Shown one piece after another: positions 32,095 through 36,455 of a DNA stretch of 64,000 bases. This stretch comes from Melastoma dodecandrum (taxonomy: Eukaryota > Streptophyta > Magnoliopsida > Myrtales > Melastomataceae). How positions within the stretch are numbered: the first letter of the stretch is position 1; each line of letters starts with the position of its first letter. The translations under genes and the position numbers were made by a program. The notes beneath the pieces were generated by a model. That model ran no database searches. It had not been told where the DNA came from and worked only from the letters and a program-made list of their open reading frames with translations. The DNA is taken from contig JARUPY010000356.1 of assembly GCA_029817715.1 (NCBI GenBank), positions 2,823,001 to 2,887,000 on the forward strand, read 5' to 3'.

Positions 32095-33001
32095 ATGGTT
32101 CAAAGTTTCATGCCGGCTAGCTTGCAGGAAATCTGGAACGCTTCCAATGTTCGAGGTTTCATGATGCTTAGCCTTTTCCTCCAGGTGCTGCTCGCATCCA
32201 CCGCCCGCCTGAGGAAGGCTTCCACCAGCAGGTTCTTTCTGTTTGTTATATGGTCGGCCTACTTCATGGCAGATTGGGTGGCGACATTCACATTCGGGCT
32301 GATCTCAAATGCACAACGAATCGACTCGATCTCCCCTCCAGTAGTCAACGAGAACCTCATGGCTTTTTGAGCTGCTTTCCTCCTGATCCACCTCGGCGGT
32401 CCGGACACGATCACCGCCTTCTCCCTAGAGGACAACGCCCTTTGGATGCGCCATCTAGTTGGGCTAGTCGCCCAACTGTCCACCTTCTTTTACTTATTCT
32501 TCAAGACCCTCCCTCACAATAACCTCATCGCCCCCACAATCCTGATTGCCGTCGCCGGAGCAATCAAGTACGGGGAGAGGACCAGATCGTTATATCTTGC
32601 AAGCATGGAAAACCTCAAGAAGTCTACCGGGAAACTGCCTGTTACAACTCTTGAAGCCTTGGAGGGAGGACATTTTACTGATAAAAATACTGGGAAAGAA
32701 GCCTATTACTTCTTCCAAATATTCAAAGGTCTAGTAGTAGAAATCAATCCCAACAATACAGAGCGAGCACAGAGTCATGAGTTCTTCCTACAGAAAGATG
32801 CGAGAGAAGCCTTTGACCTGATGGTAGCCAAGCTGGATCTTCTGTTCGAATTGTTCTATACGAAAATCTCATCCGTAAATTCTTGGTTGGGGGTGATCAT
32901 TCGCATCATCACATTGTATAGCGTTATTGGGGCTCTAATATTTGTACAGCCTTTTGGAGAAGAAGGGATTCCATGAGCTTGATATTTGGATCACCTATTT
33001 C
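32095..33001 (+). pseudogene. DUF4220 copy G, truncated at a rearrangement
   Basis: Exon 1 opens at ATG 32095 with VQSFMPASLQEIWNASNVR. TGG becomes TGA at 32368-32370 within the MAFWAAFLL segment. Beyond it, DUF4220 continues well preserved through KYGERT and the YYFFQIF segment. An extra T near 32941 shifts the frame in the GALILY helix. At about 32998-33002, in the codons for WITYF, the family sequence ends and the antisense of an RPB2 exon begins. The last part of exon 1, the intron and all of DUF594 are absent. Copy G occupies the place of the 20546 remnant in the other half of the duplicated block. Confidence 0.87.
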
Positions 33002-35149
33002 TGTAAATTGGCCCTAACATCCCTTGTCAATTTCCTGAATAACTGCATCAATGAAAATAAAAGGGTCAAATAAGTGGATGTCAACCAAAAGATTTCCCCC
33101 TCGGACATTTCCATGTAGTCACACCATTCTAAATAATCCACTGAGTAAGGGTCCAGCAAGATCAAGCCTCTTGTTGCCATAGTGGTCCCGGTCATCTTCT
33201 GCTCTTCGACCAAGAGCACACAGCAGAAGCCGGTGGATTATATATCTGCCAAGATCAACGAAAGATCACAAACAGCACACAACAATGGTTTCAAACAAAT
33301 GCACATAGTGGCAGCAAAAAACCTACCCAAAATGGTAAGCTTTCTTTGTCTGACAATACTTTTCAACGCCAACATGGGGAAGCATTTCTTTTTGAAGAAT
33401 CTCCTCCACATATCTAGACGATGTAAAGGAAATCTTCACCTCTGCCAAAAACAAAGGTATGCCATGAAAGGAATTACAATCTAAGAGGGCATACTTTATG
33501 CGCTTTTCTTGTGTCATTCCAACTGTCGCCCCTCGCTTCCCGATGTAATCCAATGCAACCTGAATTGGAGGATAAAGAAATATCAACAGACAATGCCAAT
33601 ACATTTCGACTCTGTGCCGGGGCCTCTGCTGTAACAAGTAGGATATTTGCATTCCCACGATTTTCAAAATAGGAGACAGGAGATAAGAGTAAAACAACCT
33701 CATGATTTTGTATGACAAAGGCTTCTTCAAGAGATGGACGAAGGAGTTCCATCATCCTAGTGTCAGAGAAGTCATAGCATATGTGTTCCAGAATATCCTT
33801 ATCCGCAACAAAACCCAAAGCCCGAAAAACAATGACTATGGGAATCTCTGCATGGATATATGGAAGAGTAGCACGTATATATTGTCGTGTAGATCCCTGC
33901 AGTTATTGCAGTGCATCAGAATGCAGCTGGTAGTAGTAAAAAGACGTAAGAGAATTATTATACAGTCCTTCAAGAAGCAACATAGTGAGTATTCTATGAC
34001 TACTTTCAGAACAAATGCATATGCAGTACCCCTTTTGCACCAGATTGAGAAAGCATCCGGATGAACATTGTGCTGGGAGGCCTATTTTGAGACCCGGCTG
34101 TGGAACGGATCTCCGCCACATAGGCATATTTATTTGTCTGCTGTTTTTTGAATACATACACTTGATTGGGGGTCATCTTCTCCTGGGCAATAAGAACCTT
34201 TTCATTGGCATTGACAATGAAATATCCAACTTGATCATATGGACACTCCCCTAGCTCCATCAAAACATTTTCTGAGTACTGGTTCAAGGTGCAATAACTA
34301 CATCAAACCATCACAGGAACCTTAAATTCACACAAAATTGCAACGGTTAATACCGAGCTTCTGTCCGCACAGTTGACTTAATATGCAAAAAATATACCTT
34401 CCCAATAAAGACTTTCTCTAAACCCTGAAGTTCAGTGATTTCTTCACCGTCATGACCTTTCTTGATTGCTCCCAAAGAAACATCCACATATAAGGGCGCC
34501 GAGTATGTTAGATTCCTCAACCTGGCATCCCTCGGAAGCAGGGTCACAGTTTCTCCATCCGACTCCGTCATAGTTGGCTTACTCAGATATATCTGACCAA
34601 ACTTGATTTTGTGGATAATCTACAGAAAATAAACTGGAAATAAAGAAAAATAATGGCATAGGATTGCAAACCAAAGAATCATCCAAGTATATACTTGAGT
34701 CTTGACTACACACAGTAAAATCCAGTAGTCTACTCCACCAAATTAACAATCCTCCAACAGATAATAACGAAAAACTCCTCATTTCGACATTGCCAAGTAT
34801 ATACTCTACTATCCAGAAGCCTTCTAAAAATCAACGTCCCCCCAATTCACACAGAAATAATCAACAGACTACAACAATAACAATAACACTTCTCAACTCC
34901 GACCTCGGCGAAGTCCTGCCGGCTACCAGGGACATGCTGTGGATCCGGTCTGATCTCGATATCTCCGAGCTCATCCACGATCTCCTGCATGGTGTGTTGG
35001 ACGAACTCGTTGAACGAGTCCAACTGCTGAGCAACCAGCCCTTTCTCCTCAAAGTAAGCCGAGATCACCGTCCACGCATCTTTCTGTGTGATCTCGCCGT
35101 CCTCCTTGGAGGCCACATTTTCCAGATCGTACTGCCGATCGTACTCCAT
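33001..35149 (-). pseudogene. RPB2: 5' part of the gene for RNA polymerase II second-largest subunit
   Basis: Read on the minus strand, eight exons splice cleanly: 35149-34904, 34619-34398, 34320-34030, 33896-33699, 33559-33495, 33413-33327, 33245-33125 and 33042-33001, 424 codons in frame. Motifs match plant NRPB2: EITQKDAWTVISAYFEEKGL, SAPLYVDV, ELGECPYDQ, RPPSTMFIRML, GFVADKDILEHICYDF, ALDYIGKRGATVG and LFRKLTRDVR. Full-length RPB2 has about 1190 residues, so only the N-terminal third (protrusion and part of the lobe) is present. The catalytic hybrid-binding and wall regions are missing. Codon 162 is TGA (34303-34305), where an arginine is expected. All visible splice dinucleotides are kept. 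It is a recent 5' gene fragment, not a retrocopy, and cannot make a working subunit. Confidence 0.92.
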
Positions 35150-35281
35150 CCCTAACCCTACCCTTCGCCTGGTGAGACGATCACGATCGACGGTTAGCGG
35201 GGTTTCTTCTCCCCTCTCCCCCCTGGCGCGCGCGGGAGAGCCTTCGGTGGTTTAACGGATACTCGGGGAGGGAAATCGGCC

Positions 35282-35289
35282 TATTTATA
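35282..35289 (-). promoter_or_regulatory. TATA box of the captured RPB2 promoter
   Basis: On the minus strand the sequence reads TATAAATA inside CTATAAATAG, 133 nt upstream of the RPB2 ATG (35149). This is a plausible spacing for a plant TATA box and short 5' UTR. The GC-rich, pyrimidine-rich leader (35160-35240) lies between. Confidence 0.6.
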
Positions 35290-36455
35290 GTACCAGGGGA
35301 GTTTTCTATTTAGTCCTTAGATTTATCAATATTTTCACTATTGGTCCTCTAATTTGTGTATTTTATTAAATTTTTCAATTGGGTCCATTTCGTTCTTCCA
35401 TTTATGCATGATATATGTTCCGCACATCGTCTCGCACTAAACATATGTGCATGGAAAGTAAAATTGCATTAGGCGAAAAAGATTATCGTCGCGCACCAAA
35501 AACATGACGTCGCCAAGTGTTTCAGGGTTGCCGTGACTGTTAGTGTCGCTCCAAGTTCGACCATTGCCAGCGGCGGTTCTCGCTCGTCCCGAAGGAGGAT
35601 TTGCTATATATGTTCGAGTTCTGCTTGTCCCATCTCGGCACTGTCTGCTGAGGCCACGGGTGAATATTCGAGTGAATTATGCTTGGTTTGTGGATAAAGA
35701 TTAGTATCAGGACGGTGATCGGGAACATTTTCTTGTTTATCAGTTGCAGAGGTGATTGACAGGGAGGCTCTGACTACTGGGAGCGCCTATTATTTCTCGA
35801 GGGCGACATGTCCAGGACTTGCATCCTGGGACGAACGCAATATACAGATGCATTGATGACTGTTGCACAAGTTAGAAGGGGAAGAGAGGGAAGATGTGCC
35901 GAAATGCCACAGCGAGCTCGCGATAGCATTTTGCGATGCTGAAATCCTGACAGGTCCGCCATCAGGATCATGTAGAACCTAACAATGCATGAGGACGGTC
36001 ATATGGTGATAAAGTTCATGTCCGCAGTTACGAAGAGGGAGATTATCATCCGAGATAAACAATGATTCCACCATTTCGCGGGGTCTCACTTGTGTCTGGA
36101 CTAATGGTGATGAGGGCAGGTCACTGCATCGACCATTGCTGCACCGCCGATAAGCAGTTCCGATGAGCAATGGTTCAGAAGACGTCGAACTTATGCTAAA
36201 CAATGTAGGCATCTGTTAAGAATACCTGCTCTTGGATCAGGATGCTCAACTCGTCCAAATAAGTAATTGATTCACAGTGATTTTTGCAACAAGAACATGT
36301 TCAGTACAATCTCGATAGTTTGAGGTAAAAAAGAAGGTATGAGGTCATCTTTTCCCCGAGTCGGGTTGAGGATCCTCAGAAATGTGAAGAACATTGATTT
36401 ACCGTGTGTATTGTGTCAAGTATGAAACTACAAAAGCTGATGATGATTGAAACCC
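35290..36455 (-). other. Upstream region of the RPB2 fragment and 3' flank of the DUF2921 pseudogene
   Basis: No gene recognised. The first 250 bp or so are AT-rich. A minus-strand frame at 35979-36212 is open for 77 codons but resembles nothing I know. Confidence 0.4.

What the first reader, a model, noticed from the sequence alone, without database searches (positions are those of the whole stretch)
32980..35300. 5' end of an RPB2 gene, with promoter and introns, fused head-on into a DUF4220 exon
DUF4220 copy G stops inside the WITYF codons and the next base is antisense RPB2 exon 8. The two parent sequences appear to share TTTCT at the junction, which suggests microhomology-mediated joining. 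Eight RPB2 exons splice in frame for 424 codons with all splice dinucleotides kept, one nonsense codon (TGA at 34303), and a TATA box 133 nt before the ATG. A transcript from this promoter would run through RPB2 exons and then into the antisense strand of DUF4220 copy G. That gives a chimeric RNA, which might produce small RNAs against either gene.
Basis: partly seen in the sequence, partly recalled or inferred. Interest (0 to 1): 0.75.

Follow-up and report, generated by a model that had tools for sequence, protein, structure and literature searches.

The report
Pseudogene junction made by a deletion
In a Melastoma-like plant, a spare and decaying copy of an RNA polymerase II subunit gene lost its second half in a deletion that joined it head-on to a neighbouring broken gene; the join is an ordinary product of a changing gene cluster, while the spare polymerase gene itself is the more interesting part.

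Summary
The join is real as sequence. Eight RPB2 exons lie on the minus strand (35149-32998), splice in frame for 425 codons with seven GT-AG introns and one TGA (34305-34303), and meet a plus-strand DUF4220 exon at 33002/33003. The source is not the plant's normal RPB2: intact RPB2 genes sit on two other contigs (exons 82%, introns 57-58% identical). The fragment belongs to a diverged paralog ("RPB2b"; exons 97-98%, introns 95-96% to the two full-length copies) found in five units on contigs C540 and C42 plus an older relic on C498, near DUF2921 and/or DUF4220. In four of those five units a plus-strand DUF4220 gene ends 6.0-10.2 kb from the RPB2b 3' end. The window looks like such a unit that lost about 11-15 kb: DUF4220 3' half, spacer and RPB2b exons 9-25. 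The proposed shared TTTCT is not supported; four of four RPB2b relatives read CTTTT there, leaving one exact shared base. Other units carry three other breaks. The TATA box is inherited with the paralog. Chimeric RNA and small RNAs could not be tested. Melastoma candidum has RPB2b too. RPB2b was long under purifying selection (dN/dS 0.13-0.15 against normal RPB2), yet seven of seven copies found here are broken.

The parts
32028..33002 (+). 5' part of DUF4220 copy G (ATG at 32095); has a nonsense codon TGA at 32368-32370 that none of the six other copies aligned over that site has
33002..33003 (.). Deletion junction; T33002 is the only base shared exactly by both parents
32998..33042 (-). RPB2b exon 8, its last few bases and donor lost, followed in frame by TAG made at the join
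33125..33245 (-). RPB2b exon 7
33327..33413 (-). RPB2b exon 6
33495..33559 (-). RPB2b exon 5
33699..33896 (-). RPB2b exon 4
34030..34320 (-). RPB2b exon 3, holds the nonsense codon TGA at 34305-34303
34398..34619 (-). RPB2b exon 2
34904..35149 (-). RPB2b exon 1 with ATG
35282..35289 (-). TATA-like box TATAAATA at -133, at the matching place in four RPB2b copies (window, C540a, C42a, C540b); canonical RPB2 genes have TATAAAT at -255 and -246 instead
35301..36700 (.). Spacer collinear with units on C42 and C540
36807..39376 (-). DUF2921 gene copy in several open frames; DUF2921 is the neighbour of RPB2b also in C42a, C540b, C540c and C42b, and is missing in C540a
40361..42644 (+). DUF4220 copy H with its own 5' end, so not the missing 3' half of copy G
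31935..31940 (-). AATAAA on the minus strand, a possible 3' end signal for any RNA running from RPB2b into antisense DUF4220 (motif match only)

Best explanation
The locus is a deletion scar inside a duplicated gene cluster. The ancestral unit ran DUF4220 (+), spacer, RPB2b (-), DUF2921 (-), DUF4220 (+). A double-strand-break repair event of end-joining type removed about 11-15 kb, from just after the WITYF codons of DUF4220 copy G to the end of RPB2b exon 8, leaving two convergent gene remnants joined with one shared base. RPB2b is an old, diverged paralog of RPB2, probably a whole-genome-duplication copy, that was under purifying selection for a long time, multiplied with the DUF4220 cluster, and is broken in the seven copies found. 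Shown: the nearest relatives of both arms, the order of the unit, the junction bases, the broken state. Inferred: a single deletion within one unit (a join between two units of the array would look the same), the end-joining pathway, the genome-duplication origin, and loss of function.
For: Own-genome search with 32980-35300: 11 matches; the window alone reaches left of query base 20 (window 32999); of the 10 others, 6 begin at base 20 (four RPB2b places on C540 and C42, two canonical RPB2) and 4 begin further in. RPB2b over its full length at C540:175.3-181.5k and C42:188.9-195.1k, 25 exons each in the model. In 4 of 5 units on C540/C42 a plus-strand DUF4220 lies to the left, its 3' end 6.0-10.2 kb before the RPB2b 3' end. 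Over the last 558 nt of copy G the closest relative is the left-hand DUF4220 of unit C540c (95.3%), then that of C42b and window copy E (92.8% each). Implied losses, worked out by hand from coordinates: 10.9 kb against C540c and C42b, 11.1 kb against C42a, 15.2 kb against C540a. The right side is collinear with C42a and C540b through spacer, DUF2921 and most of the stretch before copy H. Other units carry different breaks: C540b lost 2.5 kb inside RPB2b with a clean join; C540c and C42b share a loss of the RPB2b 5' half with a 6-nt filler; C540a lost DUF2921 with about 18 nt of filler.
Against: No unit in the assembly is the direct parent: the best right-side relative is 97.0% (gaps left out; 94.5% with gaps) and the best left-side ones about 95%. 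The nearest relatives of the left arm are not only left neighbours of RPB2b: copy H is 95.4% over 503 nt, copy E 93.9% over 791 nt, and the 1.5 kb upstream of G is closer to window 18990-20500 (94.4%) than to the sequence before the left DUF4220 of C540a (90.9%). In unit C540b no DUF4220 was found within 11.8 kb to the left. The left DUF4220 of C42a is only 83% alike and lacks its 5' part. The join is seen once in the assembly; no second haplotype or read data confirm it.
Confidence: 0.85

Rival explanations
1. Assembly artefact: two loci, or two parts of one locus, were wrongly joined at 33002.
For: The join occurs once in the assembly and the region is a repetitive gene cluster.
Against: The two arms share one exact base, too little for an overlap error. 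Neither arm has a near-identical copy among the loci compared: 97.0% on the right, about 95% on the left, so the arms do not look borrowed from other assembled loci. A wrong skip within one locus is not excluded by this.
Confidence: 0.06
2. A mobile element (Pack-MULE or Helitron type) or filler-DNA repair carried an RPB2-DUF2921 piece into DUF4220 copy G.
For: Gene fragments with introns and promoter next to each other are typical of such captures (recalled).
Against: The right side of the block shows no new boundary; it is collinear with other units towards the next DUF4220. The 3' half of G is not found to the right. C540a and C42a hold full-length RPB2b in the same place and orientation.
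Confidence: 0.04
3. The junction is maintained because a chimeric RNA from the RPB2b promoter supplies antisense or small RNAs against DUF4220 or RPB2b.
For: TATA box kept in four RPB2b copies; the DUF4220 arm is up to 95% identical to other copies; a minus-strand AATAAA at 31935.
Against: No expression or small-RNA data were available. Premature stop at codon 162. Promoter and antisense arm are both inherited; nothing new has been built apart from the join.
Confidence: 0.05

Closest known systems
Asterid RPB2-i / RPB2-d paralogs (Oxelman et al. 2004, Luo et al. 2007, known to me here through passages of PMC7306685)
   Same: A second RPB2 gene kept for a long time beside the normal one
   Different: RPB2b is in a rosid (Melastomataceae); in the tree it joins the plant's own RPB2, only weakly (72/61). 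It is multiplied in a gene cluster and broken in the seven copies found here. The asterid RPB2-i is reported as restricted to male reproductive structures; expression of RPB2b is unknown
Illegitimate-recombination deletions in plant genomes (end joining with little or no homology, sometimes filler DNA; described from recall)
   Same: One exact shared base at the window join; a clean join, a 6-nt and an about 18-nt filler at three other joins in sister units
   Different: Nothing in kind; only the chance head-on arrangement of two coding exons
Melastoma candidum RPB2b genes MLD38_037002 and MLD38_037006
   Same: 95.1% and 97.2% identical to the window over 425 residues, on one sequence with DUF4220 genes MLD38_036996 and MLD38_037013 by tag and contig length
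   Different: Their annotated proteins reach past exon 8; the window copy is cut. MLD38_037006 as annotated lacks a middle part, and MLD38_037002 has a stretch that does not match RPB2, so they may be damaged as well

Membership tests
RPB2 (second-largest subunit of RNA polymerase II) | Rpb2 domains 1 and 2 | tested here: met
   PF04563 2.6e-60 and PF04561 8e-51
RPB2 (second-largest subunit of RNA polymerase II) | Closer to Pol II RPB2 than to the Pol IV/V second subunit | tested here: met
   Exon 1 peptide: 53.8 bits to yeast RPB2 chains against 24.9 bits to the best Pol IV/V subunit-2 chain; RPB2b's best protein hits are RPB2, nearly all from plants (best 120 of 5413 listed)
RPB2 (second-largest subunit of RNA polymerase II) | 25-exon plant gene structure | tested here: met
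   Canonical C272, and RPB2b C540a and C42a, all fit 25 exons; the window holds the first eight
RPB2 (second-largest subunit of RNA polymerase II) | Open reading frame able to make the subunit | tested here: not met
   TGA at codon 162 and loss of exons 9-25 in the window; 6 frameshifts plus 1 internal stop in C540a and 3 plus 2 in C42a by the alignment used
Asterid RPB2-i / RPB2-d paralogs | Descent from the same duplication | tested here: inconclusive
   RPB2b groups with the plant's own RPB2 at 72/61 only, Trapa and the window row left out; the midpoint root is not informative; which asterid rows are -i or -d was not determined
Microhomology-mediated end joining | Several exact shared bases at the join | tested here: not met
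   One base; TTTCT absent in 4 of 4 RPB2b relatives that cover the site. A lost variant in the true parent cannot be excluded
Transposon gene capture (Pack-MULE, Helitron) | Two new boundaries | tested here: not met
   Only the left boundary is new; the right flank is collinear with other units
Transposon gene capture (Pack-MULE, Helitron) | Terminal repeats or target-site duplication | not tested
   No dedicated search was made
Processed (retro) copy | Introns missing | tested here: not met
   Seven introns kept

The most novel reading that the evidence does not exclude
RPB2b is a second, specialised Rpb2 subunit that arose in the Melastoma lineage independently of the asterid RPB2-i gene, worked for a long time beside normal RPB2, was multiplied inside a DUF4220 cluster, and is now being lost; the window junction catches one copy in the act.
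Probability: 0.3. Interest if true: 0.55.

Novelty: new member of a known kind. Interest (0 to 1): 0.3.

Why it matters
The join itself adds one well-resolved example of how plant gene clusters make chimeric pseudogenes by deletion. Of wider use is the paralog behind it: RPB2 is described as single-copy in most flowering plants (passage of PMC7306685), and a long-constrained, separately evolving second copy in a rosid, now amplified and decaying, gives an independent comparison with the asterid RPB2-i/RPB2-d pair for asking what a duplicated Pol II subunit is kept for. It also warns that RPB2 used as a marker in this family could pick up RPB2b.

Tried and rejected
Microhomology TTTCT: not supported by the parent sequences. 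Insertion of a captured block: rejected, right flank collinear and no 3' half of G found to the right. Retroposition: rejected, introns kept. Fragment of the plant's normal RPB2: rejected, 75% against 93-94% identity for RPB2b and introns 57-58% against 95-96%. My own first statement that the intact RPB2 genes lack a TATA box was wrong: one search had shown too little upstream sequence, and one search found TATAAAT at -255 and -246. My first neutral share of 0.745 was a guess; one search uses 0.78 from the site counts, which lowers the P values. Known RNA families in the window: none at gathering score. A search for further RPB2b 3' halves and a search with copy G plus the junction were sent many times and never answered, so the number of RPB2b units is a lower bound, which score only the best candidates. 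Whether C42 and C540 are two haplotypes (units C42a/C540b and C42b/C540c are 98-99% alike) or C94 has an allele was not settled. Species: a Melastomataceae near Melastoma by protein hits, not identified further; the best M. candidum DUF4220 is only 80% alike. Print, listings only: RPB2 with Melastomataceae (12 papers, 8 listed, by title mostly fungal plus one on barcodes), DUF4220 with DUF594 (10 of 10 listed), RPB2 paralogs (8 of 8 listed; 12 of 1,057 listed), Melastoma candidum genome (7 of 7), end-joining deletions (10 of 35), AT4G21700 or AT4G21710 (6 of 9). None of the listed titles reports RPB2b. Passages were seen of PMC7306685, PMC9911893 (plus its section 2.4 in full), PMC11638103 and PMC1790633. 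Oxelman 2004 and Luo 2007 were seen only as citations.
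Full report
What is there. The window is G000:C94:2823001-2887000 of a 373 Mb plant assembly in 607 contigs. A spliced alignment of plant RPB2 to the minus strand gives eight exons, 425 codons, seven GT-AG introns and one TGA at codon 162. A TATAAATA box lies 133 nt before the ATG. On the plus strand DUF4220 copy G starts at 32095 and its identity to the other copies ends at 33002. No other part of RPB2 was found in the window at E up to 1.

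Which RPB2. RPB2 genes without stops or frameshifts lie on C272 (858.2-864.4k, 25 exons) and C589 (from 2465.3k; only the first 830 residues were modelled because the fetched stretch ends there). Their exons are 82% and their introns 57-58% identical to the window. They differ from each other by dS 0.16 and dN 0.0044 over 823 codons. The fragment instead matches a second set at 93-94%: two full-length copies (C540:175.3-181.5k, C42:188.9-195.1k), three partial ones on the same contigs and a scattered relic on C498 at about 79-84%. I call this set RPB2b. Against the two full-length copies the window's exons are 97.7% and 96.5% and its introns 96.0% and 95.1% identical, gaps left out. Against canonical RPB2, RPB2b has dS 0.65-0.82, dN 0.09-0.11 and a ratio of 0.11-0.16 over the full and part-length comparisons.

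Constraint. Between RPB2b copies the ratio is 0.20-0.27 over all codons. Nonsynonymous changes are fewer than expected without selection in 3 of 3 pairs (12 of 28, 18 of 39, 54 of 109; binomial P 5e-5, 1.5e-5, 8e-11 at a neutral share of 0.78; codons near indels and codons read as stops were left out, and transition bias was ignored). Changes private to the window copy, 8 nonsynonymous and 7 synonymous plus one stop, are only weakly below that expectation (P 0.03). So constraint lasted into the multiplication of the copies. Yet 7 of 7 copies found, the window included, are now broken: stops and frameshifts in the full-length ones, missing exons in the rest. Frameshift counts depend on the alignment used.

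The unit. Mapping DUF4220, RPB2b and DUF2921 on the fetched stretches shows: C42a, DUF4220 (+) ending 182.7k, RPB2b (-) 188.9-195.1k, DUF2921 196.4-199.1k, DUF4220 (+) from 202.7k. C540a, DUF4220 (+) 163.0-165.1k, RPB2b 175.3-181.5k, no DUF2921, DUF4220 from 185.7k. C540c and C42b, DUF4220 (+) on the left, RPB2b without its 5' half, DUF2921, and for C42b the start of a DUF4220 on the right. C540b, no DUF4220 within 11.8 kb on the left, RPB2b with an internal gap, DUF2921. The window has copy G cut at about position 970 of 2112, then RPB2b from exon 8, DUF2921, DUF4220 copy H. Over its last 558 nt copy G is nearest to the left DUF4220 of C540c (95.3%), though copies H and E are close as well over other stretches, and its upstream 1.5 kb is nearest to another place in the window (94.4%) before C540a (90.9%). 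Taking each unit as proxy parent, the missing stretch is 10.9 kb (C540c, C42b), 11.1 kb (C42a) or 15.2 kb (C540a), worked out by hand. This is a deletion, or an equivalent join between two units of the array.

The junction. Left relatives read ...CACCTATTTCTTGC (3 of 3 printed), right relatives ...ACCTTTTGTAAATTGG (4 of 4 that cover the site), the window ...CACCTATTTCTGTAAATTGG. One T is shared exactly. Exon 8 loses its last few bases and donor site and the join creates an in-frame TAG. The three other deletions compared show a clean join (C540b), a 6-nt filler (C540c and C42b, shared) and about 18 nt of filler (C540a), which is what end joining gives (recalled).

Promoter. TATAAATA stands at the matching place in four RPB2b copies (window, C540a, C42a, C540b). 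The two canonical genes have TATAAAT at -255 and -246. So a TATA box is no special trait of this copy, and its distance from the ATG differs between paralogs.

Wider setting. The best protein match of RPB2b is Melastoma candidum MLD38_037002 (93%); MLD38_037006 is 97.2% identical to the window over 425 residues. By locus tag and contig length both lie on a 29.2 Mb sequence that also carries DUF4220 genes MLD38_036996 and MLD38_037013, so the cluster is older than this genome. No DUF2921 with a nearby tag appeared among the 21 hits listed; the M. candidum DUF2921 hits are MLD38_019335 and MLD38_019336 on another sequence, which does not support a DUF2921 neighbour in that species. RPB2b rows form one clade (100/100) on a branch of 0.39 (34 rows); with Trapa and the short window row left out they join the plant's own RPB2 at weak support (72/61, 32 rows). 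M. candidum had two genome duplications with Ks 0.256-0.280 and 0.927-1.022 (PMC9911893, section 2.4). My simple dS values, 0.16 for the canonical pair and about 0.7-0.8 for RPB2b, are lower than both but of the right order; that RPB2b comes from the older event is inference. The normal RPB2 on C589 has DUF4220 genes on its 5' side, in the same relative orientation as in the RPB2b units; the 20 kb held around C272 shows neither DUF4220 nor DUF2921, and C589 no DUF2921, at E up to 1e-8. One DUF2921 hit is named 'like AT4G21700', and NRPB2 is AT4G21710, so RPB2, DUF2921 and DUF4220 may be old neighbours; the adjacency in Arabidopsis is read from the locus numbers only.

How it works. As a gene it most likely does nothing: DUF4220 copy G has a private nonsense codon and lacks its second half, and RPB2b has an early stop and lacks exons 9-25. 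If transcribed from its inherited promoter it would give an RNA with an early stop and antisense DUF4220 at its end, with a possible poly(A) signal at 31935 on the minus strand. Whether this happens is untested.

Verdict. The paralog it exposes deserves more attention than the join.

Noticed in passing
C540:175326-181499, C42:188900-195099 (L009, L011); P0001, P0008, P0010: A diverged RPB2 paralog in the Melastoma lineage, long under purifying selection, multiplied in a DUF4220 cluster and broken in the seven copies found in this genome.
   Followed up: partly
C540 and C42 units: RPB2b-DUF2921-DUF4220 units have lost different parts, with short fillers at two joins; C42a/C540b and C42b/C540c pairs are 98-99% alike and may be alleles.
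   Followed up: partly
C589:2456040-2459340 (L016): DUF4220 genes also lie beside one normal RPB2, in the same relative orientation as in the RPB2b units; the other normal RPB2 (C272) shows none in the stretch held.
   Followed up: partly
window 8115-15748: Large imperfect inverted repeats (arms within 8753-9729 and 14230-15121, 90-92% complementary) around a DUF4220 copy.
   Followed up: no
window 1943-6440 and 44304-46506: Reading frames that look like Copia-type retroelements (by eye) on the plus and on the minus strand.
   Followed up: no
window 40863-41227: DUF4220 copy H has about 360 nt of other sequence in place of about 146 nt of the gene.
   Followed up: no
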